Below, piece after piece: positions 13,473 to 57,230 of a stretch of DNA of 64,000 bases; position 1 is the first letter of the stretch, and each line of letters starts with the position of its first letter. The notes beneath the pieces were generated by a model that worked only from the letters and a program-made list of their open reading frames with translations, had not been told where the DNA came from and did not search any database. The position numbers and the translations under genes were made by a program. Source of the stretch: Fibrobacter succinogenes. GTDB lineage: Bacteria; Fibrobacterota; Fibrobacteria; Fibrobacterales; Fibrobacteraceae. The stretch covers positions 1-64,000 of the forward strand of contig NZ_CACZDK010000010.1 of assembly GCF_902779965.1 (NCBI RefSeq). Direction: 5' to 3'.

Positions 13473-15965
13473 ATGCTTGATTACATTTCGATTCGCGGTT
13501 GCAGACTCCATAATTTAAAGAATGTCAACGCTCAGTTTCCACTGGGGAAAATTACGGTTGTGTGCGGACCGTCAGGTTGCGGAAAATCGACGCTCGTGAT
13601 GGACACGCTCCACGGTGAAAGCAAGCGGCGTTACCTCGAAACGCTCTCGCCCTTTGCGGCAGATTTGCTCGGAGGCAAGCGAAACATTCCGCTTGACAGC
13701 GCCGAAGGACTCCCGGCAAGTTTAGCGATTGCCGCCACGCGAGGAGAGGCACCTGCGAAAGCAACTGCACTTTCGATAGCCGAATGCGACAACGCCTTGC
13801 GTACATTGTTTGCAGCGTTCGCAAAGCCCGCCTGCCCGATTTGCGGAGCTCCGATGGTAAGCCAGAGCCGCGAAGAGATTATTCGCGAAATTGCGGGAAT
13901 GTCCGTTGGGACAAAGCTACAGTTCTTGGCGAGAATCGAGACGGGGAATGACAAGGAGAATGCGCAGGGCAAAAGTCGCACGACTTTGGATAAGTTGTCC
14001 GCAGTGTTTTTGGCACAAGGTTTTACGCGTGCGATAGCCGATGGCACCATGTATTCGCTTGCAGACTTGCTCCCCGGCGAAAAAGTCTTGACTCCCAAAG
14101 AATTTTTCATCATCGTTGATAGAATCATCGTCCGCGAAAACACGCGCACACGAATCGCAGAAGCTGTTGACGGCACGCTAAAACTTACGCATTCCGCAAT
14201 CACGCTTGACATTGCTGGCGAACGCAAGTTCTACAGCACAAAGCCGTGCTGCCCAAACGCAGGCGATGAACAGCACCAATCGCAAATATCCAGCGAAACC
14301 GTCGCCAACCTAGATGCCCGCGCATTTTCGCCTTACAACCGCACCAGTATTTGCGAATACTGCGAAGGCACCGGAATCGTTCAGGAAGCGACAACAAAAG
14401 AGAACGCGAACCGTCAAAAGAACCGCGCCGACAACGATGTAAAAAGCGACGATGACGAAAACGCTGAATGCCCGCATTGCCACGGATTCCGCCTCAAGAA
14501 AACATATCTAAACGCCACCATTGACGACGTGAGTTACAAGCAAATTCTCACAACTGAATTTACGGAATTGCCGAAACTTTTGCACCAAATTTTCGACAAC
14601 AAAATCGGGCAGAATTTAAAAGCGACATTCAATTCGCTCCTCGACCGCATCGAGGCAATTAACGATTTGGGCATTGGCTACCTCACGCCAGGGCGCGCGG
14701 GGCAAACGCTTTCGGGCGGCGAATTGCAAAGGCTCAAGCTCGCAAGCCTCAGCACCGGGCACTTGAACGGGCTTTTGATTGCGCTTGACGAACCTGCCAG
14801 CGGTCTCCACGCCAGCGATGTCGCCGCACTCTGGAAAGTGCTCGAGAAAATCCGCAAGCGCGGCAATACGCTCGTACTCATTGAGCACAATCCGCAAATC
14901 ATCAAGCGAGCCGATTACATCATTGAAATGGGTCCTGGCGCAGGCGAAAAGGGCGGCGAGATTCTGTTCCAAGGCTCTCGCGACGAAGTGCTTGAAAATC
15001 CAGAATCACCCACGGGGAAATGGATTAAAGTAGTAGGAAGTCGGAAGTCGGAAGTCGGAAGAAATGCAAAATGTCATTGCGAGGAGCAAAGCGACACGGC
15101 AATCCACAAAGGCAAGGAAAACGCAGCAATTCTCGTTGAGAATTTTGCGAAGTTCGACATGGCGCCGGTGAACGCGGCCTTCCCCATCAACAAATTCAGC
15201 GTGATTACGGGCCAAAGCGGCAGCGGAAAATCGACACTCCTTTTCGAAAACATTGCCAAACGCGCCAAAGCCGAAGAATTCAAAAAACTAGGTATCGACG
15301 CCCTTTCCATTCTCACGACCGGAGATTTTCACGGAAGCAAACGCAGCACCGTCATGAGCGCCATCGGTCTCACCACGCTATTGCGCGACTTATTTGCGAA
15401 TCTCCCCGAAAGCAAAGTGCGCGGCTACACGGCATCTAAATTCACGACGCACGCCCCCGGCGGTCGCTGCGAGAACTGCAAAGGCGAAGGAGTCATCTAC
15501 GATCCGCTCGGCTACGAAGAATCCGAATGCCCCGTTTGTCTCGGTAAACGCTTCCGCGATGAAGTCTTGGAAATCCGTTTCAAGTCGCTTTCCATCGCCG
15601 ACATTTTGGACATGGAAATCGGCAGTGCATACAAGCTATTCACAAACATGAAGCCATTCGCCGAAAAGCTCAAACCGCTTGTCGATACAGGCCTCGACTA
15701 CCTCAAACTCGGACAAACGACAGCGCACCTCTCCGGTGGCGAACGCGCACGACTCCGCCTTTCCATTACGCTCGCACGCGCCAAAGCGCCAAACACATTG
15801 TTCCTCTTTGACGAACCCGCCCGCGGGCTGCATCAAAAAGACATCCAGCAATTGCTCGGCCTCATTCGCGGACTCTGCAATGCAGGCCACACAATCATCG
15901 CCATCGAACACGCGCAAGACTTTGTTGACGCAGCGGATTACGTTGTGGAATTGAAACGGAAATAA
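13473..15965 (+). CDS. UvrA-like ABC ATPase (UvrA paralogue) with an in-frame dispersed repeat
   Basis: The 830-residue tandem ABC ATPase is of the UvrA class, about 110 residues shorter than canonical UvrA. Module 1 has Walker A GPSGCGKSTL (about 32-41), signature LSGGELQRLKLAS and Walker B LLIALDEPASGLH. Module 2 has GQSGSGKSTL, LSGGERARLRLS and LFLFDEPARGLH. Zinc-type Cys pairs are CPIC, CEYC...CPHC and CENC...CPVC. It may take part in excision repair or belong to the drug-resistance-associated UvrA2 type; the cellular role is inferred. Residues about 519-546, between the modules, are encoded by repeat DNA (see 15029-15111). No uvrB or uvrC lies nearby. Confidence 0.83.
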   Translation: MLDYISIRGCRLHNLKNVNAQFPLGKITVVCGPSGCGKSTLVMDTLHGESKRRYLETLSPFAADLLGGKRNIPLDSAEGLPASLAIAATRGEAPAKATALSIAECDNALRTLFAAFAKPACPICGAPMVSQSREEIIREIAGMSVGTKLQFLARIETGNDKENAQGKSRTTLDKLSAVFLAQGFTRAIADGTMYSLADLLPGEKVLTPKEFFIIVDRIIVRENTRTRIAEAVDGTLKLTHSAITLDIAGERKFYSTKPCCPNAGDEQHQSQISSETVANLDARAFSPYNRTSICEYCEGTGIVQEATTKENANRQKNRADNDVKSDDDENAECPHCHGFRLKKTYLNATIDDVSYKQILTTEFTELPKLLHQIFDNKIGQNLKATFNSLLDRIEAINDLGIGYLTPGRAGQTLSGGELQRLKLASLSTGHLNGLLIALDEPASGLHASDVAALWKVLEKIRKRGNTLVLIEHNPQIIKRADYIIEMGPGAGEKGGEILFQGSRDEVLENPESPTGKWIKVVGSRKSEVGRNAKCHCEEQSDTAIHKGKENAAILVENFAKFDMAPVNAAFPINKFSVITGQSGSGKSTLLFENIAKRAKAEEFKKLGIDALSILTTGDFHGSKRSTVMSAIGLTTLLRDLFANLPESKVRGYTASKFTTHAPGGRCENCKGEGVIYDPLGYEESECPVCLGKRFRDEVLEIRFKSLSIADILDMEIGSAYKLFTNMKPFAEKLKPLVDTGLDYLKLGQTTAHLSGGERARLRLSITLARAKAPNTLFLFDEPARGLHQKDIQQLLGLIRGLCNAGHTIIAIEHAQDFVDAADYVVELKRK
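15029..15111 (+). repeat. Heptamer array plus TCATTGCGAGGAGC-type repeat inside the UvrA-like gene
   Basis: GTAGGAA followed by three GTCGGAA heptamers (about 15033-15060) is joined to a dispersed repeat containing TCATTGCGAGGAGCAAAGCG and CAATCCACAAAG. It is read in frame as the peptide KCHCEEQSDTAIHKG. The same families occur in gaps of this window. Confidence 0.8.
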
Positions 15966-34956: not shown

Positions 34957-35045
34957 ATGGTGCGACAAAGATAGTAAAAAAATCTCTTTTGTCAAAGATA
35001 AATGCCTAAAAATTTTCAAAAAAAAAGAGCATTTTACAGAAATTT

Positions 35046-35115
35046 AGTTACTAGCTAATAGTTAGTAGTTACTAGAGGCTCTTTAGTTACTAGATACTAG
35101 TTAATAGTTACTAGA
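35046..35115. repeat. Heptamer array of the TTACTAG type
   Basis: Units TTACTAG, CTAATAG, TTAGTAG, TTACTAG and, after a short gap, TTACTAG, ATACTAG, TTAATAG, TTACTAG, all 7 bases long. A second array of the same type is at about 44970-45001. Together with the next element it fills the 340-base gap 34957-35296, which holds no gene. Confidence 0.8.
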
Positions 35116-36211: not shown

Positions 36212-36378
36212 TCAATAGTCAATAGTTGGTAGAGCTTAGATAGATTGCCGCGCTTCGCTCGCAATGACGTGGGAGCCGAATACAGCGACAAGTTTACTTG
36301 TTCATTGTTGAGGCGAACCAGTCATGCGCTCTGCGCAATAACGTTTTTCTAAGTTCTAAGTTCTAAGCTCTAAGTTCT
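36212..36378. repeat. Repeat-filled gap between ftsK and ispE
   Basis: GTCAATA heptamers (36214-36230), an inverted TCATTGCGAGC-type element (GATTGCCGCGCTTCGCTCGC near 36242), CAAGTTTACTTG, then TTCTAAG heptamers (four units, about 36349-36376). Confidence 0.7.
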
Positions 36379-44893: not shown

Positions 44894-45246
44894 GCCCCAA
44901 ATATAGTCATTTTTAGAGTAGGATGTAGGAAGTAGACAGTAGGAAGTAAACGGCAGGCAATAAGAAGTACTTAGTTAATAGTTACTAGTTATTAGTTACT
45001 AGTGTTTCTAAAAATAAAATTTTCTTGTAACTTAGGACTTAGAAATCAAAACACATAATATTTTTCATAAAAAAAATTTTTTTTATGACATTTCACAAAT
45101 TATTATGTATCTTTTAACCCGTTCCGCCATTTCGGAACATAATATTTAATCATCATTAAAATTTTTGGGGCAACAAAGCCCTTATTATCCATTCACTATA
45201 TAAGTCTATTTCATTTTCTTGAAATATCTAATTATAGGACGCAATC
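44894..45246. promoter_or_regulatory. Intergenic region: heptamer arrays, then rho leader
   Basis: Positions 44915-44960 hold GTAGGAA/GTAGACA-type heptamers and 44970-45001 hold TTAATAG/TTACTAG heptamers. Further on, a perfect A/T palindrome CAT-A8-T8-ATG lies at 45066-45087 and a GTTCCG-CCATTT-CGGAAC hairpin at 45121-45138, about 110 bases before rho. The latter could be part of a regulated leader; many bacteria autoregulate rho. Confidence 0.5.
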
Positions 45247-48359: not shown

Positions 48360-48452
48360 ACAGTAGACGGTAGACAGTAGGAAGTAGACTGTATTAAGTT
48401 TGGCGGCAAAGCCGCGATTATAAACTTCCGACTTCCAACTTCCTACTTCCAA
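48360..48452. repeat. Heptamer arrays around a mini-hairpin
   Basis: GTAGACG/GTAGACA/GTAGGAA units run forward (48364-48390), then GGCGGCAAAGCCGC, then the same type in reverse (CTTCCGA, CTTCCAA, CTTCCTA, CTTCCAA; about 48425-48452). The whole is a large inverted structure. Confidence 0.75.
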
Positions 48453-48457
48453 CTAAA

Positions 48458-49822
48458 ATGCCTTCCATCGATTTTTTCACAAAAGAGACTGCAACGTCCT
48501 CGTTCATCTTGGACGTTCTTTCTTCTGTGGATAATAAGGTCGATGTTCATACCCCAACCAATGACGATTCGCCTGAAATCGCAGAAGCGCTCCGAGCTCC
48601 GCTCGCGGCTATTGTCATTTGGGATTTAGATTCTTTTACCGCAAAAAACGTAGAATTGCTTTCAAGCCTCCGCGAGCACAATCCAGACTCCATGATTCTC
48701 GCCTACGCCGAAGCCCCCGAGCGCCACGCCACTGTTTCTAGCAAACTTTACGATGCGATCCTTTCAACTGAAGCGTTGCGCCTTCACTTGATGAGCAAAA
48801 TTTCACGTCTCAAGGAAATCTACAACGCCAAACGAGTTTTTCGCGAAAGAATGTCGCACCTCGTCGGCAAAAGCGATGCCATAAAACGTTTGCGCAAGAA
48901 CGTAGAACGCGCCATTTTGCATACAGGCCCAGTGCTCATTCAAGGAGAATCAGGAGTCGGCAAGGACTTGATTGCACGCGCTATTGCCTGCGTTTACGAC
49001 AAATTCGTTACCGTCAACTGTAGCGCTATTCCCGAGGCACTTTTCGAAAGCGAACTTTTCGGGCACACACGCGGAGCCTTTACGGGAGCGCAAAACGAGC
49101 GCATCGGCTTATTCGAAGATGCCAACGGCGGAGCCATATTCCTCGATGAAATCGGCGACATGCCTCTGCACGCTCAAGTCAAGCTTTTGCGAGTCATCCA
49201 GAATCACGAAATCCGCCCCATTGGCGCCAACAAAACACGCCACATCAACGTACGCATCATCGCGGCCACCAACCGTGACCTCAAAGAAGAAATTTTCGAA
49301 AAGCGTTTCCGCGAAGATCTTTACTACCGCCTAAACGTCATTCCAATGCAGCTTTCACCGCTCCGCGACCGCAAAGAAGACATTGAGGATTTAGCAAATT
49401 ACTTTATCCGTCAGTATGCTCCAGCAGGCGAACCTTACACACTCTCGCCCGATGCTTTGAAAAAACTCCAGGAGCATAACTGGCCCGGAAACATTCGCGA
49501 ACTCGAAAACGTCATCCAGCGCGCGCTTTGCTTTACAGACCCCGGAGTTTTAAATCCCGAAGACCTGCAAATCGACGAAGATTCACGCAAAATTTCAGGA
49601 TTTTCAAGCGCCGATAGCGCCACCATCAAAGCTTATAACGCCAATAGCTATGACGACTTCCGCAATATGCAACTCGACGAAGAACGCGAATTTTTAAAAT
49701 CAACCATCCGCAATTGCGATGGATCTGTAAGCCTTGCCGCCGAACGCCTTCACATGAACCGCACCGCGCTATACAACCGCCTCGCCCGCCTTGGCTTAAG
49801 CGTTAAAGACGTTCAATCTTAA
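48458..49822 (+). CDS. Sigma-54-dependent activator with degenerate receiver domain
   Basis: The 454-residue product. Residues 1-120 look like a receiver fold ([28 protein letters not shown]) but lack the usual acidic pocket and Lys pattern, so phosphorylation is doubtful. The AAA+ core (about 135-370) has Walker A GESGVGKD, the sigma-54 contact GAFTGA, Walker [13 protein letters not shown] and the arginine-finger region [12 protein letters not shown] Fis-type HTH ends the protein ([21 protein letters not shown]). No partner kinase is nearby. Its 3' end overlaps the convergent TraB/GumN gene by 20 bases. Confidence 0.9.
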
Positions 49823-50744
49823 AGCCGCGCTTGCGAAGCGTTTCAATCACATTGTCTTTTTCAAGCGCCAAATGCGCTACACCCACAACAACAAAAACTT
49901 TCCTGTCTTCACGCAAAAAAGTAGCTATTGAATCAGCCATTTTTGCGTTGCGGTTCACGTAAATACGTTGTTCAAACTCATCTTTAAATTTGCTTTCATG
50001 CAAAGGCATTTCATCATTTTCGCCATCATCCAGCAAGCGGCGCAACATGTCATCATCGCCCGTTTTCCAAGCTTGCATCAGATTTGAAACCAAAGATTCA
50101 AATTCTGCAATTTCATGCAAAGTCGTCTTTAAATAGTAAACTCCAGCCGAATCCGATTCCGTTGTATCCGCAAGAGCGCCAATTTGTTCTTCAGCCGTTT
50201 CCAAACCGATAATCGCCTTGCCATCCATCGCCGCACGATCTAGCAGCACGTAATCAATTCCATATTCTGGATTCAAACCCGCCTGCATAAACGCATACGA
50301 ACTGAGCGTCATTGCCGCAAGCCACGGACGAGTTTTCTCAATCATTACAATCGGAACATCCCAAGCCGTACAAAGGCTATCTACTGTATTCCACATGTCC
50401 TGCGGCAACAAATCGCGAAGCGTTCCCTCAGCAAGCATTCCTTGCGCTGCCGATTGCTCCCCCACTTCTTTCACGACTTCTTCATCGTTCATGTTGAGTT
50501 CTACAGCAAGTTCATCCGCATGCGCAAAAGCAGAATCAATTACAGGTGCAAGCGGATAAAGAGTCGAATCGGCCAAATGAATACTCCCCAGCACCCATAC
50601 CGAAGAATTTTCATCGGACACTTTCCAAAAGAAATGTTTGCTTTCTGGCTGAGACGCATTTTTTTTTGAAGTCCCCGAACAAGCAATCAAGCAAGCCGCC
50701 AAGAGTACATAAAATAAAGCAAACAAAGTATATATTTTTTTCAT
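49803..50744 (-). CDS. TraB/GumN-family lipoprotein 1
   Basis: The 313-residue product has a lipobox (LIAC, near Cys22), then the TraB/GumN fold: WKVSDENSSVWVLGSIHLADSTLYPL (about 40-65), ELAVELN, LETAEEQIGAL and [24 protein letters not shown] at the end. The two GxxH-like motifs and the conserved Glu residues suggest a metal-dependent hydrolase of the Tiki/TraB clan; substrate unknown, peptidase activity is known for eukaryotic relatives. It is a tandem duplicate of the next gene (50780). Confidence 0.85.
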   Translation of the reverse strand: MKKIYTLFALFYVLLAACLIACSGTSKKNASQPESKHFFWKVSDENSSVWVLGSIHLADSTLYPLAPVIDSAFAHADELAVELNMNDEEVVKEVGEQSAAQGMLAEGTLRDLLPQDMWNTVDSLCTAWDVPIVMIEKTRPWLAAMTLSSYAFMQAGLNPEYGIDYVLLDRAAMDGKAIIGLETAEEQIGALADTTESDSAGVYYLKTTLHEIAEFESLVSNLMQAWKTGDDDMLRRLLDDGENDEMPLHESKFKDEFEQRIYVNRNAKMADSIATFLREDRKVFVVVGVAHLALEKDNVIETLRKRGFKIERL

Positions 50745-50779: not shown

Positions 50780-51727
50780 TTAATAGCGTTCAACTACATA
50801 GCCCCGATTTCTGAGATTTTCAATCACGTTGTGTTCTTCAAAAGCCAAATGGGCAGCACCCACTACGACAAAAACGTTTCTATCGTCACGCAAAAAACTG
50901 GCAACAGAATCTGCCATTTTCGCATTGCGATTTACCAAAAGACGTTGTTTAAACTCTTCCATATACAGCACTTCGCTCGGTGTGTAATCTTGCGTGTTTT
51001 CTTCTGACAACATACTATTCAACAGTTCATCATCGCCCGTTTTCCAAGCTTTAACCAAATCTCTTATCGAAGGTTTAACTTTAGGAAGTTCGCGTATAGC
51101 AGACTTCAACAAGCAAATGCCAGCCGAATCGGATTCCGACGAACCCGCTAACGCCTCAACTTGCTCTTCTGCAGTTTCCAAGCTGATGATAGGTTTACCA
51201 CCCTCTGAGGCCTTCCGCATGAACACATTATCAAACCCATATTCAGATTTCAACCCAGCCTGCATATACGCATAAGTGCTAATACTCGAAGCTACCAACC
51301 AAGGTCGCATCGATTCAAACGTACTCACAGGCAAATTCCATGCAGAGCAAAGACTATCTAAAGAATACCACAATGTTGTTGGCAATAAATCCCATAAAGT
51401 TCCCTCAAGAAGCATTCCACGCCGATTGATCAGCCACTGTACTTCGCTTGATGTATAAGCATCACTCATATTTATTTCAACAGCAAGTTCACTCGCCGCA
51501 TTAAAAGCAGAATCAATCACCGTTGGAAGTGGGTAAAACGAAGCATCAGCCACATGGATACTCCCCAGCAACCATACCGAAGAATTTTCATCCGACACTT
51601 TCCACAAAAAGTGTTTGTCCCCCCAATCCACTGACGGTTCCGGTAATACTGACGATTCAGAACACGCCACCAACCATGCCATGCAGCATGTCAAGCAAGT
51701 CCCCAGCAAAGCACGAATTTTTTTCAT
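50780..51727 (-). CDS. TraB/GumN-family lipoprotein 2
   Basis: The 315-residue paralogue of the preceding protein: lipobox LVAC, WKVSDENSSVWLLGSIHVAD, ELAVEINMSD, LETAEEQVEAL and VVVGAAHLAFEEHNVIENLRNRGY. All core motifs are kept in both copies, so both are probably active. The start at 51727 is chosen because GGGAGG lies 9 bases upstream; an ATG at 51736 would leave no spacing. It lies 42 bases after the ABC ATPase gene on the same strand. Confidence 0.85.
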   Translation of the reverse strand: MKKIRALLGTCLTCCMAWLVACSESSVLPEPSVDWGDKHFLWKVSDENSSVWLLGSIHVADASFYPLPTVIDSAFNAASELAVEINMSDAYTSSEVQWLINRRGMLLEGTLWDLLPTTLWYSLDSLCSAWNLPVSTFESMRPWLVASSISTYAYMQAGLKSEYGFDNVFMRKASEGGKPIISLETAEEQVEALAGSSESDSAGICLLKSAIRELPKVKPSIRDLVKAWKTGDDELLNSMLSEENTQDYTPSEVLYMEEFKQRLLVNRNAKMADSVASFLRDDRNVFVVVGAAHLAFEEHNVIENLRNRGYVVERY

Positions 51728-51769
51728 TATTTTCATCCTCCCTAAAGAAATCAATTTAAATATACACAA

Positions 51770-52513
51770 CTAAAAAAGATCTGTCCAATCAAGCAATCCA
51801 TTTTTACGAGCTTCGTCCGCAGGCGCCACACGCACAGCACCACCATTCACCACCATAATTCTATTGCAATAGCGTTCCGCATATTCCACAGAATGAGTCG
51901 AAACAATGATGCCCATATTTCGTTCCGTTACGATTTTCTTAAGCAACCGGAATAGCGCGTGGCTACGCGGAATGTCCAAGAACGCATTCGGTTCATCGAG
52001 CAACAAGACCTTCACCTGTTGCGCCACAGCCTCCGCTAAAAACACGCGGCTTCGTTCGCCATCGCTCAGTTCTGCAATCGGGCGATTCGCAAAATTCGCA
52101 ACATCCAAAAGCGCCATCGATTCCTCGACAATGCGTTTGTCTTCTTCCGTGCGACTGTCAAAAATTCCAGAATAGGGGGATCGGCCTAAACGAACAAATT
52201 CACTCACACTCATGCGAGGCGGTACAGCACTCGACATGCGCACCAGCGAAATAATCTGCGCACGTTCACGCGGAGCCCAATTTACAAGCGGTTTCCCTTC
52301 AAGCGAAACCTCGCCCGCAACCGGCGAAAGCAAGCCCGCAAATGTTTTCAACAGCGAACTTTTGCCGCACCCGTTCTCGCCCATCAAGGCCACAACCGTT
52401 CCAGGCGTAAGCGCAAAATCAAACGGCTCATTCATTGTCGAGAGCGCATTGCCATAACCCACAAGCAAATTTTTGCATTCCAACAAAACAGAAGATTTTT
52501 TCAATTCACTCAT
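51770..52513 (-). CDS. ABC transporter ATP-binding protein (FepC/BtuD type)
   Basis: The 247-residue ATPase has Walker A ALMGENGCGKSSLLK (about 43-57), Q-loop region, signature LSDGERSRVFLAEA, Walker B VLLLDEPNAFLDI and the H-loop STHSVEYAERY. It pairs with the FecCD-type permease 9 bases upstream, making an importer for a siderophore, heme or cobalamin-like ligand; the ligand is not deducible. ATG at 52513 with AGGGGG upstream is preferred over a TTG at 52516. Confidence 0.88.
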   Translation of the reverse strand: MSELKKSSVLLECKNLLVGYGNALSTMNEPFDFALTPGTVVALMGENGCGKSSLLKTFAGLLSPVAGEVSLEGKPLVNWAPRERAQIISLVRMSSAVPPRMSVSEFVRLGRSPYSGIFDSRTEEDKRIVEESMALLDVANFANRPIAELSDGERSRVFLAEAVAQQVKVLLLDEPNAFLDIPRSHALFRLLKKIVTERNMGIIVSTHSVEYAERYCNRIMVVNGGAVRVAPADEARKNGLLDWTDLF

Positions 52514-52522
52514 CAACGCCCC

Positions 52523-53494
52523 CTACATCCGCGCACCAGAACCGCGCACAAGCACCCACATAATCACGGGAACGCCCACAAGCGAGAGCACTGCATTCAG
52601 CGGCACCGAAGCAGGGAAAAGCCCGCCCAAAAGCGCAAGCGCAATCCCGCAAAACGCAGCCCCCGGCAAGAGCACGCGATGATTCGTCGTCTTGAAAAGC
52701 AAATACGCCAAATGCGGAACCGCAATTCCAATAAAAGCAACAGGCCCGCAAAACGCCGTCGTTGCCCCCGCCAAAAGACTTGCCCCAAGCAACACGCAAA
52801 TTTTGGAACGCTTCACGTTGAGCCCAAGTCCATGCGCAAAATCGTCTCCCAGCAAAGCAGCATTCAAATAACGGAGCGAAAAACCAATCAGCGCCATGCC
52901 CACAATAACAGTAGACACAAAAATCCAAACGTCTCCAAGCGTCACACGGCCAAAGCTACCCATGCCCCACGCCACATAAACACGCAGCGATTCCGAAGAG
53001 TTCCCAGCAATCAATACGCTCACAATCGAATCGATAAAGTATCCCGTCAAAAGCCCGACAATCAAAAGCACACCCGTCTGTGCAAAACGGCTCGCCGCAA
53101 ACATCACGACAAGCGTCACGAGCAAAGCCCCAAGCGCTGCCGAGCCCAGCACGCCGACACTTCCAAAGCCAATACCCGCCAAAAGCGCAAGCGCCACACC
53201 GAGACTTGCGCCACTGCTAATGCCAAGCACAAACGGCCCCGCAAGCGGATTCCGAAACACCGTCTGTAGCGACAAGCCCGACACAGCAAGCGATGCGCCT
53301 GCAAGCACCGCCGCAATCATCTTCGGGATTCTCAAGTTCCACAAGATATTCGACGAAACATCCGCACCCGGGCTAAACAGCGCCTGCACCACATCTGCAA
53401 ACGGGATGTTCACCGCGCCAAAGCAAAGCGTCGCCACACACAACAAAAAAATCAAAACAATCAGGGTCACAAACCCAATCAACAACCGCCGCAA
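52523..53494 (-). CDS. FecCD-family ABC permease
   Basis: The 323-residue inner-membrane permease with about ten helices. Family marks are NLRIPKMIAAVLAGASLAVSGLSLQTVFRNPLAGPFVLGISSGA at about 52-95, GLNVKRSK (ATPase-coupling loop region) and FCGPVAFIGIAVPHLA. The start codon is TTG at 53494 with GGAGG upstream. The first 8-9 codons and this ribosome binding site are repeated at 55101-55147, on the far side of the AAA ATPase gene. No substrate-binding protein gene is visible nearby. Confidence 0.9.
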   Translation of the reverse strand: MRRLLIGFVTLIVLIFLLCVATLCFGAVNIPFADVVQALFSPGADVSSNILWNLRIPKMIAAVLAGASLAVSGLSLQTVFRNPLAGPFVLGISSGASLGVALALLAGIGFGSVGVLGSAALGALLVTLVVMFAASRFAQTGVLLIVGLLTGYFIDSIVSVLIAGNSSESLRVYVAWGMGSFGRVTLGDVWIFVSTVIVGMALIGFSLRYLNAALLGDDFAHGLGLNVKRSKICVLLGASLLAGATTAFCGPVAFIGIAVPHLAYLLFKTTNHRVLLPGAAFCGIALALLGGLFPASVPLNAVLSLVGVPVIMWVLVRGSGARM

Positions 53495-53515
53495 AATAAG
53501 CCTCCGCGAAAAAAT

Positions 53516-54931
53516 TTAAAACAAGTCATCCAGCGTAAGTTCTTTCTGAACAAAACCACTGTACTTATTATGCTTTAAACCAAACGAAGTCACCATCGTG
53601 AACATGACAGATTTTTTCGTATTCGTCTCCGAAATAAAAGCCTCTATCTTTTTTTCAAAATTTTCGCAGTCACTCTTTGTAATTTCGTATTCCGTCTTAG
53701 AAAATTTCATTTCACACAGATTTATCGTCTGATCAGCCCTATCAATAAGCAAATCAATTTGAGCACCTTTAACTTTATTTTTATGCGTACGCCAACTGCA
53801 AACACGGCTTTGAACACCTGATATTCCAAGCGCATTTTTCATTTGAGCGACATGATTCAGGCAAAGCATTTCAAACGCAAGCCCGCTCCACGTTTTGAAC
53901 AATGGCGACCGAAGCGAATTTGTCCAGAAATGGTCATCCTGATTTTTATTTTCGGATTCAAAGTAAAAATGAAACAACGTAAAAGGATCAATAAGTTGAA
54001 TAAGTACATCCCTTTTGGTATTTCCAATAGGAGTGTATTCTCGCGTAAAACCGCACTGTTCCAATTCCGTCAAAACAGTCGAGAAAGCCTTATTGTTATT
54101 AAGCCCAGTCGTATCCAAGATTTCCTTTCTTGTCATTCCCATTTTCTTGGTTGCAAGAGCTTCTATAACAGCTTCATGCCCAGCACTTTGTTTAAACAAA
54201 GACCTGTATAAATTCTGAAATTCAAGTCGCAACTCGCCAATTCTCGAAAACACAAGCCTGTCAATATTTTGGGCAACACTTTCATCAACATTCATCAGGG
54301 AATAATAATAAGGAACCCCTCCAAACGCCATATAACATTCCGCAATTTCTTTTCGACGATAGCCAAAGCCATAAATCTTAAAATATTGTTCCGCCTCGTT
54401 CAGTGTAAACGGAGCTATCTCTATTTGATGAGTAACGCGGTTGTGAAGCCCACCCCGATTGCAAATTAATTTGTCAATCATCCAAGATGTAGCAGAACCG
54501 CATACAATCAATTTGATATCATTCCGATCAGAAGCAAAGCTATTCCAAAAATGTTCCAAAGCCCCCACAAATAGAGACCTTGCCGTATCAAGCCAAGGCA
54601 ACTCATCAATAAAGACAATTTTTTTTTTCGAACCAAGGCTATCCAAATACCGTTCTAATTGGTCAAAAGCCGACAGCCATGTTGTCGGTTTGGAACACTC
54701 TCCAATTTTTTTCTGCAAAGCAAGTTGAAAATTTTCCAGCTGTGTCACCAAAGAAGCAGTTTCCATTCCAGAAAAAGAAAAAACAGCATTTTTTCCAACA
54801 ACTTGACGTATAAAAAAAGTTTTGCCTACACGCCGCCGCCCATAAACAGCAATAAACTCCGACTTATCGGATTCAAGGTATTTTTGAAGCAATTGAGTTT
54901 CTTTTTCACGGCCAACCAAAACAGGCTGCAT
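53516..54931 (-). CDS. AAA ATPase of the archaeal-type COG1672 class with DUF234-like C-terminus
   Basis: The 471-residue product has P-loop AVYGRRRVGKTFFIRQ (about 32-47), Walker B KKIVFIDELPWLD, sensor-like LIVCGSATSWM, a winged-helix middle (MGMTRKEILDTTGL) and a C-terminal PD-(D/E)XK-like core (GAQIDLLIDRADQTINLCEMKFS, about 405-427). Such proteins are common, mobile-looking and of unknown function. It is AT-rich compared with its neighbours, sits inside an ABC operon, and is preceded by a 52-bp-period repeat array. The start at 54931 has AAAGGAGG 9 bases upstream; an upstream in-frame GTG/TTG-type extension is less likely. Confidence 0.85.
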   Translation of the reverse strand: MQPVLVGREKETQLLQKYLESDKSEFIAVYGRRRVGKTFFIRQVVGKNAVFSFSGMETASLVTQLENFQLALQKKIGECSKPTTWLSAFDQLERYLDSLGSKKKIVFIDELPWLDTARSLFVGALEHFWNSFASDRNDIKLIVCGSATSWMIDKLICNRGGLHNRVTHQIEIAPFTLNEAEQYFKIYGFGYRRKEIAECYMAFGGVPYYYSLMNVDESVAQNIDRLVFSRIGELRLEFQNLYRSLFKQSAGHEAVIEALATKKMGMTRKEILDTTGLNNNKAFSTVLTELEQCGFTREYTPIGNTKRDVLIQLIDPFTLFHFYFESENKNQDDHFWTNSLRSPLFKTWSGLAFEMLCLNHVAQMKNALGISGVQSRVCSWRTHKNKVKGAQIDLLIDRADQTINLCEMKFSKTEYEITKSDCENFEKKIEAFISETNTKKSVMFTMVTSFGLKHNKYSGFVQKELTLDDLF

Positions 54932-54973
54932 AGAGAGGCCTCCTTTCCTCAATAATATAATAAAAAAAAATCC

Positions 54974-55099
54974 ATTTCAGCACTTTTCAACACGAAAATT
55001 GCTGAAATCAATATTAAAACAAACCATTTCAGCACTTTTCAAAACAAATATTGCTGAAATGACTATAAAAATTCATAATTTCAGCACTTTTAATTTTTC
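54974..55099. repeat. 52-bp-period array of palindromic sites upstream of the AAA ATPase gene
   Basis: ATTTCAGCA starts at 54974, 55026 and 55078, exactly 52 bases apart. In the first two units TGCTGAAAT follows at 55000-55008 and 55052-55060, giving two 35-bp inverted repeats; the third unit is a left half only. CTTTTCAA follows each left arm in the first two units. A possible promoter on the minus strand uses CTGAAA (in the first arm) and TATTAT 17 bases on. The 302-base gap 54932-55233 otherwise holds the vestigial permease start and AT-rich DNA. Confidence 0.8.
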
Positions 55100-55147
55100 A
55101 AACGCAATAAACCCAATCAACAGCCGCCGCAAAAAAGCACCTCCAAT
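55074..55147 (-). pseudogene. Vestigial 5' end of the FecCD permease gene
   Basis: Reading the minus strand, GGAGG then TTG and codons for MRRLLIGFI match the real permease start at 53494 (MRRLLIGFV); 25 of 26 bases agree between 53471-53496 and 55109-55134. After codon 9 the match is lost and the frame ends at TGA near 55074 (19 codons in all). It is read as the scar of an insertion or duplication. Confidence 0.7.
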
Positions 55148-55233
55148 TAGACTTTTTCAATTTAAAAATAGCTAAACAGAAATCTGTCTAGCCTTTACTT
55201 TAATTTACCAATTTCTGGTATTTTCAAAAAAAA

Positions 55234-55815
55234 CTAAAAAGACAATATCGCATTCGCACCAAAGCTTGCATTAGCCAAATTCAGTGTAGGAACAACCCTT
55301 AACTGAACAGACTGCCATCCTTCTTGCAGCATCCTTACTTTATAACGATCCAAAGCCTCTTGATATTGGTCTCGTTTGATTGCATGTTCTTTGCGAACAT
55401 TGTATTTATGAATGTTATAAGCAAGAACAGGTATCCCCAAAAGGTAAAATGGAATGGAGACACCTATTGACACTCCACCAGCAACCCTATCAAAAACCTC
55501 ACCCCACCCATCATCACTATCACTTGTTTCATTTATCGCGTAAATTCCAATAGCAAGAAAAAATGTTCCTACACAAACAAGTCCACCACCAAATACAATA
55601 CCCTCAATGTTTGCTCCATACGAAGCGTCTTTATTTTCAAACTCAATCAATTCTTTATAAATATCAACACTATCCAACTCAACTAGATAATAAACATTTT
55701 CTACTTCCGACGAAGCTTCAGTTTCGGGCACCCCGCGAAAATCAGACATATCATCCGCAAAAGCAAACGACAAACCAGCAACTAGGAGAATCAAGAAAAA
55801 TAACTTATTATTCAT
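55234..55815 (-). CDS. Small membrane protein of unknown function
   Basis: The 193-residue product has a signal peptide (MNNKLFFLILLVAGLSFAFA), then two hydrophobic segments (about 73-95, GIVFGGGLVCVGTFFLAIGIYAI, and about 112-135, GGVSIGVSIPFYLLGIPVLAY). A KYNVRKEHAIKRDQYQEALDRY helical segment follows and the end is VPTLNLANASFGANAILSF. It resembles small glycine-rich envelope proteins common in Bacteroidota/Fibrobacterota. No function is assigned. AT-rich. Confidence 0.6.
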   Translation of the reverse strand: MNNKLFFLILLVAGLSFAFADDMSDFRGVPETEASSEVENVYYLVELDSVDIYKELIEFENKDASYGANIEGIVFGGGLVCVGTFFLAIGIYAINETSDSDDGWGEVFDRVAGGVSIGVSIPFYLLGIPVLAYNIHKYNVRKEHAIKRDQYQEALDRYKVRMLQEGWQSVQLRVVPTLNLANASFGANAILSF

Positions 55816-56102
55816 TTTATACGCTTCCAAAAAGAAATAATTCCACCATGTTAAGTTTTCACTCTAAAGTAACCATATAAATTCGCAGCTTTAGGTTTTC
55901 CCCTATAAATCTATATTAAATTATACAAAATAATTTGTTCCACTAATAAATTTAAATTTTTCACTACAGCTAATTTTCAACCCATGTTGCCAGCAATAAA
56001 ATCAACAGGCAAGGATGGGGTGGGCGCAAAGAGGGGCCCATGCAGCCTTCGTAACTCCAAGCAGAACCCTACCCGCATCTTGAAATTTCTATCTTTCTTA
56101 CC

Positions 56103-57230
56103 ATGCTCGACTATTCTCAAGTTCCAAGTCCTTGTTTCGTACTTGACGAAACACGTCTCCGCCGCAACATGGAAATCCTCGATGATATCCAGAAAAAGAC
56201 CGGCGTCAAAATCATCTGCGCCCTCAAGGGTTACAGCTTCTGGCGTTCTTTCCCGCTCATTGGCGAATACCTCGCCGGCGCCACCGCCTCTAGCCTTAAC
56301 GAAGCTCGCCTTGCGCGCGAAGAGATGAACAAGGAAGTTCACGTTTTCGCACCGGTTTACGAAGACGACGAAATCGACGCGATTCTTGATACCGCCGACC
56401 ACATCACGTTCAACAGCTTTTCGCAATGGCAGCGTTTCAAGGACAAGACGCTTGCCCACGGCGTGAGTGCCGGCATCCGCGTGAACCCGGAATACTCCTC
56501 AGTCGAGACCGACATTTACAACCCCTGCGGCAAGTACTCCCGCCTCGGCGTAACCGAAATCGAATTCAAGCCAGAACTCCTTGACGGTATCGAAGGGCTC
56601 CACTTCCATGCGCTTTGCGAACAAGATTCCGACGCGCTCGAAATTGTCCTTGCCGAATTCGAAAGACACTTCGGCAAGTTCCTTCCGCAAATGAAGTGGG
56701 TGAACTTCGGCGGCGGTCACCACATCACGCGTAAAGACTACCATCGCGATGATTTAGTCCGCATCCTCAAGGAATTTTCGGCACGCTACCCGCACTTGCA
56801 AATCATCATGGAACCGGGCGAAGCCATCGGTTGGCAAACAGGCGAACTCGTCGCCAGCGTTGGCGATATCGTCCACAACGAAATGGACATCGCCATCTTG
56901 AACGTTTCCGTCAGTGCACACATGCCGGACTGCCTTGAAATGCCGTACCGCCCGAATATCATCGGTGCAGCACTCCCGCGCGAAAAAACTCATACGTACA
57001 AACTTACAGGCAATTCTTGCCTCGCCGGCGACCAGCTCGGTGACTATTCGTTCGACGAACCGCTCAAAGTTGGCGACCGCATCATCTTCGAAGACATGAT
57101 CCATTACACGATGGTCAAGACCACGTTCTTCAACGGAGTGCGCCACCCGAGCATCGGCAAGTTTGACGAAAGCGGCAAATTCCACCTGCTGCACAAATTC
57201 ACGTACGAACAGTTTAAGGAGAAGCTATAA
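56103..57230 (+). CDS. nspC: Carboxynorspermidine/carboxyspermidine decarboxylase
   Basis: The 375-residue PLP enzyme of the alanine racemase fold makes norspermidine or spermidine from the carboxy form. Lys42 in CALKGYS is the PLP lysine. LEGLHFHALCEQDSDALE (written here from the GIEGLHFHALCEQ segment), WVNFGGGHHITRKDY, IMEPGEAIGWQTGELV and the late GNSCLAGDQLGDY are family motifs. The usual partner, carboxynorspermidine dehydrogenase, is not next to it. There is no strong ribosome binding site at the ATG. A repeat-rich gap follows. Confidence 0.92.
   Translation: MLDYSQVPSPCFVLDETRLRRNMEILDDIQKKTGVKIICALKGYSFWRSFPLIGEYLAGATASSLNEARLAREEMNKEVHVFAPVYEDDEIDAILDTADHITFNSFSQWQRFKDKTLAHGVSAGIRVNPEYSSVETDIYNPCGKYSRLGVTEIEFKPELLDGIEGLHFHALCEQDSDALEIVLAEFERHFGKFLPQMKWVNFGGGHHITRKDYHRDDLVRILKEFSARYPHLQIIMEPGEAIGWQTGELVASVGDIVHNEMDIAILNVSVSAHMPDCLEMPYRPNIIGAALPREKTHTYKLTGNSCLAGDQLGDYSFDEPLKVGDRIIFEDMIHYTMVKTTFFNGVRHPSIGKFDESGKFHLLHKFTYEQFKEKL

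What the first reader, a model, noticed from the sequence alone, without database searches (positions are those of the whole stretch)
53471..55147. AAA ATPase apparently inserted at the 5' end of an ABC permease gene, leaving a copy of that 5' end
The permease start (TTG, preceded by GGAGG) and its first 8-9 codons occur twice: once at the functional gene (53471-53496) and once at 55109-55134, with 25 of 26 bases identical. The AT-rich ATPase gene and a 52-bp-period array lie between. The outer copy loses identity after codon 9 and ends in a 19-codon frame. This looks like an insertion that regenerated the target gene's 5' end. No integrase is visible, so the mechanism would be unusual. A local duplication followed by loss is the alternative. 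No substrate-binding protein is visible upstream.
Basis: partly seen in the sequence, partly recalled or inferred. Interest (0 to 1): 0.72.

Follow-up and report, generated by a model that had tools for sequence, protein, structure and literature searches.

The report
Candidate defence gene inserted, leaving scar
A mobile ATPase gene of a candidate anti-virus family sits in front of a transporter gene, and the stray second copy of the transporter's start is best read as the leftover start of the cell's own transporter gene after DNA carrying the ATPase was pasted in with matching sequence on one side only.

Summary
In detail: the permease start occurs twice (25/26 bases; the only two such words in the genome) and flanks a PF01637/DUF234 ATPase and its palindrome array. 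The insertion reading is supported. Five relatives have one permease start and no ATPase, and one of them (G042) has the same upstream gene, so it is a true empty site. The outer copy is not a general mark of the insertion: three other relatives carry the same ATPase at this locus without it. A parallel case at polA shows the likely origin. There, an ATPase-free form, an ATPase form without duplication, and a recombinant joining them at a 5-bp ACAAA microhomology all exist. The truncated second polA start is the recipient's own gene start, left by acquisition that was homologous on one side and illegitimate on the other. The same forms exist at the permease. The ATPase is a full-length PADLOC PDC-S27 protein with an ORC/Cdc6-like fold. 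Across phyla, members carry a private array of alternating half-sites (43/45 half-site columns invariant here against 24/68 spacer columns). Near-identical ATPase+array modules lie in unrelated contexts with sharp ends. How the module first reached each site is unknown.

The parts
52523..53494 (-). FecCD-type ABC permease, intact copy, start TTG
   Evidence: Pfam PF01032 E=2e-68; 93-94% aa in five relatives
51770..52516 (-). ABC transporter ATP-binding protein, next gene of the operon
   Evidence: Pfam PF00005 E=4e-30
53471..53505 (-). inner copy of the permease 5' end with its GGAGG (53501-53505), about 10 bp after the ATPase stop codon
53516..54931 (-). AAA+ ATPase (PF01637) with winged helix and C-terminal PD-(D/E)XK-like DUF234 domain; PADLOC PDC-S27; ATG at 54931 (upstream TTG at 54952 also possible)
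54952..54980 (-). weak promoter-like site (CTGAAA-17-TATTAT) whose -35 lies in the innermost half-site
   Evidence: not above the shuffle expectation, but TTATATTATTGA is invariant in four strains
54974..55086 (.). array of five alternating inverted half-sites (54974-54982, 55000-55008, 55026-55034, 55052-55060, 55078-55086), centres 26 bp apart
55101..55144 (-). outer, truncated copy of the permease 5' end (GGAGG, TTG, about 11 codons), contiguous with native upstream DNA
55170..55193 (-). terminator-like hairpin of the upstream gene, conserved in the ATPase-free allele G042
55234..55830 (-). hypothetical gene without Pfam match; directly upstream of the permease in ATPase-free G042 (82% nt)

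Best explanation
The block [half-site array + PDC-S27 ATPase + permease] was acquired from a relative. On the permease side the incoming DNA recombined by homology. On the other side it was joined illegitimately inside the recipient's own permease, about codon 11. This left the recipient's native upstream gene, intergenic DNA and the first ~44 bp of its permease region as an outer remnant, while the donor supplied the intact permease start directly behind the ATPase. The ATPase most likely binds its private array through the winged helix and controls its own promoter; since the permease start lies 21 bp behind the ATPase stop, the transporter genes are now probably co-transcribed from that promoter. 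Shown: empty sites, same ATPase without the outer copy, the recombinant structure at polA, constraint on half-sites. Inferred: which allele was donor and recipient at the permease, autoregulation, co-transcription. Unknown: how the module first reached each site.
For: Five ATPase-free alleles have one permease start. Three further carriers lack the outer copy; the inner junction is the same in the two where it can be read, and the DNA beyond the outermost half-site differs in all four carriers. Both parental arrangements exist: hypothetical gene-permease without ATPase (G042) and array-ATPase-permease without duplication (G069). The permease gene tree groups the four carriers (support 0.964), while trees of the neighbouring ABC gene and of the gene at 56103 do not, consistent with movement of ATPase and permease as a block. 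At polA all three states are seen: ATPase-free G061; ATPase-bearing G064:C81 with native upstream DNA and no duplication; and G049 plus G064:C82, where G061-type DNA through polA codon ~53 (98-bp internal deletion) is joined at ACAAA to G064:C81-type DNA. Homology-facilitated illegitimate recombination through 3-10-bp segments is documented in transformable bacteria (PMC6382021).
Against: The exact donor and recipient of the window strain are not in hand and its junction microhomology cannot be read. Only 4 sites in the permease are fixed between carriers and non-carriers (window: 3 carrier-like, 1 other), so block transfer there is weakly resolved. Inner and outer copies share a G (GATTGGG) not seen in the seven relatives aligned, which a direct duplication would explain more simply. 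Natural transformation of these bacteria was not tested.
Confidence: 0.62

Rival explanations
1. Transposition-like insertion with target duplication: the array-ATPase module inserted itself into the permease 5' end by a staggered cut (perhaps by its own PD-(D/E)XK domain), duplicating ~44 bp; the outer copy later decayed in G073, G069 and G090.
For: Module ends are sharp and recur in unrelated contexts. Upstream and downstream flanks share direct repeats in 13/65 Fibrobacter loci against 0/195 mismatched pairs, and 24/75 loci of other taxa against 0/225, e.g. 153 bp at L078. The outer copy abuts the array and the inner copy lies about 10 bp from the ATPase stop. Inner and outer copies share an otherwise unseen G.
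Against: Many of the flanking repeats are the palindrome arrays themselves, a few are simple or neighbouring-gene repeats, and the others vary from 21 to 339 bp. At polA the duplication is absent from one carrier and explained by a microhomology hybrid. Outer junctions differ among all four permease carriers. No conserved terminal repeat or fixed target duplication was found.
Confidence: 0.25
2. Local duplication of the permease 5' end before or without insertion, then loss.
For: The outer copy is in native position and decayed.
Against: No ATPase-free relative (five examined) has a second start, and this leaves unexplained why the ATPase lies exactly between the copies.
Confidence: 0.06
3. 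Assembly chimera joining an ATPase-free and an ATPase-bearing strain allele.
For: Draft genome (76 contigs, 2.2% contamination); polA recombinants are partly from a mixed genome (G064 has several polA loci).
Against: The window contig is 109 kb. G049 (20 contigs, 100% complete) has the polA recombinant and shares its exact junction with G064:C82 at 95% overall identity, so at least that one is biological. A 26-bp word is unlikely to mislead an assembler across 1.6 kb.
Confidence: 0.07

Closest known systems
PADLOC PDC-S27 (candidate single-gene anti-phage system: ATPase fused to a PD-(D/E)XK domain)
   Same: Full-length match (E=4.4e-194, residues 4-470 of 470); reported as spread by horizontal transfer between bacteria and archaea (PMC12988326)
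   Different: The two papers consulted do not, in the passages read, mention a private half-site array, module ends or insertion in front of genes; defence activity is unproven in general and untested here
Homology-facilitated illegitimate recombination scars (Acinetobacter, S. pneumoniae, P. stutzeri; PMC6382021)
   Same: One homologous end, one microhomology end, truncated recipient gene left behind (polA: ACAAA)
   Different: Inferred from natural genomes, not a transformation experiment; at the permease the microhomology is not resolved
Archaeal ATPases of PF01637 with solved structure (2qen PABY2304; 2fna) and Orc1/Cdc6 initiators
   Same: AAA+ followed by winged helix; Orc1/Cdc6 also bind arrays of repeated, partly inverted sites (own knowledge)
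   Different: Extra C-terminal PD-(D/E)XK-like domain; best TM-score 0.57 by target length; no replication role tested
Transposons and insertion sequences
   Same: Discrete module in many contexts, empty sites exist
   Different: No transposase or integrase family hit in the module's gene, no consistent terminal inverted repeats or fixed-length target duplication

Membership tests
PDC-S27 (PADLOC) | full-length profile match | tested here: met
   E=4.4e-194, residues 4-470 against profile 4-473/474
PDC-S27 (PADLOC) | ATPase fused to a PD-(D/E)XK-type domain | tested here: met
   PF01637 above cutoff; DUF234 E=6e-4, just below its cutoff; D392 and E406-x-K408 invariant in 9 diverse members; the strands and helices around them are modelled with good confidence
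PDC-S27 (PADLOC) | anti-phage activity | not testable with these tools
   no experiment
Transposable element | discrete ends in unrelated contexts | tested here: met
   near-identical modules share about -118 to the stop codon only
Transposable element | terminal inverted repeats or fixed-length target duplication | tested here: not met
   no common ends; flanking repeats variable or absent
Transposable element | encoded transposase or integrase | tested here: not met
   only ATPase_2/AAA/DUF234 and PDC matches, plus weak clamp-loader or regulator hits; no DDE, HUH, tyrosine or serine recombinase family hit
Homology-facilitated illegitimate recombination scar | both parental arrangements present among relatives | tested here: met
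   permease: G042 and G069; polA: G061 and G064:C81
Homology-facilitated illegitimate recombination scar | 3-10-bp microhomology at the illegitimate end | tested here: inconclusive
   met at polA (ACAAA); unresolved at the permease
Autoregulatory operator array | sequence-conserved sites upstream of the gene, spacers free | tested here: met
   43/45 against 24/68 columns, Fisher P=1.6e-11; strong palindrome in 68/78 upstream regions of other taxa against 3-5 of 70-78 in controls
Autoregulatory operator array | binding by the ATPase and repression | not testable with these tools
   no binding data

The most novel reading that the evidence does not exclude
PDC-S27 genes are self-moving single-gene elements: the ORC-like AAA+ core assembles on its private half-site array and its PD-(D/E)XK domain cuts the target, so that array plus gene is the whole element (in some members the array is found on both sides), and the variable flanking duplications are its insertion products.
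Probability: 0.17. Interest if true: 0.88.

Novelty: new variant of a known kind. Interest (0 to 1): 0.58.

Why it matters
Thousands of PDC-S27 genes are catalogued as candidate defence systems with no known mechanism. The private half-site array in front of most of those examined here gives a direct handle: bind the protein to its array, test repression, and ask whether phage infection relieves it. The natural recombinants show how such modules spread between strains and settle in front of housekeeping genes such as polA without destroying them, and warn that a flanking duplication is not by itself proof of transposition.

Tried and rejected
Target duplication by transposition was the leading reading after and was demoted when the polA loci resolved into two parents and a hybrid. 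An apparent module boundary at -515 in the polA locus turned out to be native upstream DNA. A dispersed-repeat origin of the array was rejected: the exact palindrome occurs only at this locus, in 4 of 80 genomes. Flanking-repeat hits judged irrelevant: L114 (shared leader of two genes), L135 and L228 (simple repeats), L129 (weak), L137 (other subfamily, repeated neighbouring genes). The 153-bp repeat at L078 lies in remnants of a recombinase-like gene and was not traced to its origin. Literature searches for DUF234/DUF4143/PF01637 with mobility gave nothing relevant. NCBIfam gave no match.

Full report
1. The observation. The two 26-bp words at 53471-53496 and 55109-55134 match at 25/26 positions and are the only ones in the 4.09-Mb genome at up to 3 mismatches. 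Both have GGAGG in front of the TTG. The ATPase (53516-54931) and an A+T-rich array of 52-bp period lie between.

2. Empty sites. The permease at 93-94% aa identity was found in five relatives. All five have one permease start and no ATPase in front of it. In G042 the same hypothetical gene, intergenic terminator and Shine-Dalgarno precede the single permease start, so the ancestral join can be read directly. Against these alleles the outer copy of the window is seen to sit in native position and to run to about codon 11 (GCGTT), then stop.

3. Same ATPase, no second copy. G073, G069 and G090 carry the ATPase at the same place (94-95% aa). Where it can be read (G073, G069) the inner junction, ATPase stop to Shine-Dalgarno to permease, is the same; in G090 that side is at a contig end. 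None of the three has the outer copy; beyond the outermost half-site each has different DNA: G073 enters the end of the hypothetical gene, G069 reaches native upstream DNA through a short unrelated piece, G090 has other DNA. The second copy is therefore a feature of the window strain's outer junction, not of the ATPase's presence.

4. The polA parallel. A PDC-S27 module of another subfamily ends 26 bp before polA in G049, G064 and G036. In G049 and G064:C82 a decayed piece of the polA 5' end (upstream leader, a 98-bp internal deletion, then codons ~34-53, 95% identical) lies before the module. G061 shows the ATPase-free arrangement, 95% identical to G049 up to that point. G064:C81 shows the ATPase-bearing arrangement without duplication, with native DNA upstream. 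The hybrid switches from one to the other at GCACAA/ATCTAT, where both parents read ACAA(A). This is the signature of acquisition that is homologous on one side and joined by microhomology on the other, documented with 3-10-bp segments in transformable bacteria (PMC6382021).

5. Applying it to the permease. Both parental arrangements exist there too (G042 and G069). The permease tree groups the four ATPase carriers (0.964), but trees of the genes on either side do not, as expected if ATPase and permease travel as a block. Sites fixed between carriers and non-carriers are few, so this is support, not proof. I put one-sided recombination at 0.62 and target duplication at 0.25.

6. What the module is. 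The protein matches PADLOC PDC-S27 over its full length. An AlphaFold model (mean pLDDT 86) has AAA+, winged-helix and C-terminal PD-(D/E)XK-like parts; the nearest solved folds are PABY2304 (2qen) and, among others, ORC/Cdc6 proteins. PDC-S27 is a catalogued but mostly unvalidated defence candidate with thousands of members in bacteria and archaea (PMC12988326; PMC13356809).

7. The array. It consists of five 9-bp half-sites in alternating orientation with centres 26 bp apart. Among the four permease carriers 43 of 45 half-site columns are invariant against 24 of 68 spacer columns (P=1.6e-11). The subfamilies have their own half-site sequences, and in the well-resolved arrays the spacing is similar (25-27 bp; some about 30). 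In 78 relatives from other genera and phyla (mostly Bacteroidales, also Clostridia, Kiritimatiellae, Synergistaceae, a Succinatimonas), 68 have a strong palindrome within 200 bp upstream, against 3-5 of 70-78 control stretches. The exact palindrome of the window occurs nowhere else in 80 genomes of the genus. A private operator for autoregulation is the simplest reading; the innermost half-site covers the -35 position of a weak promoter match.

8. Mobility. Near-identical modules in unrelated contexts share only about -118 (array edge) to the stop codon. Flanking direct repeats are commoner than in mismatched pairs (13/65 against 0/195; 24/75 against 0/225), but many of them are a second copy of the array behind the gene (L197, L207, L238, L242, L262, L263) and the rest vary in length. 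Self-mobility is not excluded and is given as the novel case (0.17). In 27 of 62 loci the module ends within 60 bp of a same-strand open reading frame, for example a gene that reads like hsdR, and polA.

9. Limits. Genomes are drafts, several from metagenomes; genome handles are anonymous. No expression, binding or defence data exist. The two papers on PDC-S27 were read only in the passages found.

Noticed in passing
L197, L207, L238, L242, L262, L263 (also L041, L085 in the genus): PDC-S27 genes with a direct copy of their palindrome array, or half-unit, immediately behind the stop codon as well as in front, so the gene is bracketed by its own array.
   Followed up: partly
L119, about 160-240 bp upstream of its ATPase start: An array of the subfamily of L041 (ATTTAGAGA...) standing in front of an ATPase that has a different array of its own: a possible solo array left after loss of its gene.
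   Followed up: partly
L122, L123, L124: PDC-S27 module between a type I restriction specificity gene (Methylase_S) and a gene that reads like hsdR, whose ATG overlaps the ATPase stop codon.
   Followed up: no
L078, -252..-99 from ATPase start and +45..+198 from stop: A 153-bp direct repeat (97%) flanking an ATPase, made of remnants of a tyrosine-recombinase-like gene that is intact in G049.
   Followed up: partly
window 15032-15061, 35045-35115, 36347-36378, 44972-45003, 48423-48454: Short tandem arrays with 7-bp units of different sequence (AGTCGGA, TAGTTAC, TTCTAAG, AACTTCC).
   Followed up: no
window 49803-50744 and 50780-51769: Two adjacent TraB/PrgY/GumN-family genes (PF01963) downstream of the ABC transporter genes, apparently a tandem duplication.
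   Followed up: no
window interval 53495-56102 and its orthologues: The interval between the permease and the gene at 56103 is a variable spot: without the ATPase it holds no gene (G034, G055), this hypothetical gene (G042) or an unrelated membrane-like gene (G047, G050).
   Followed up: partly
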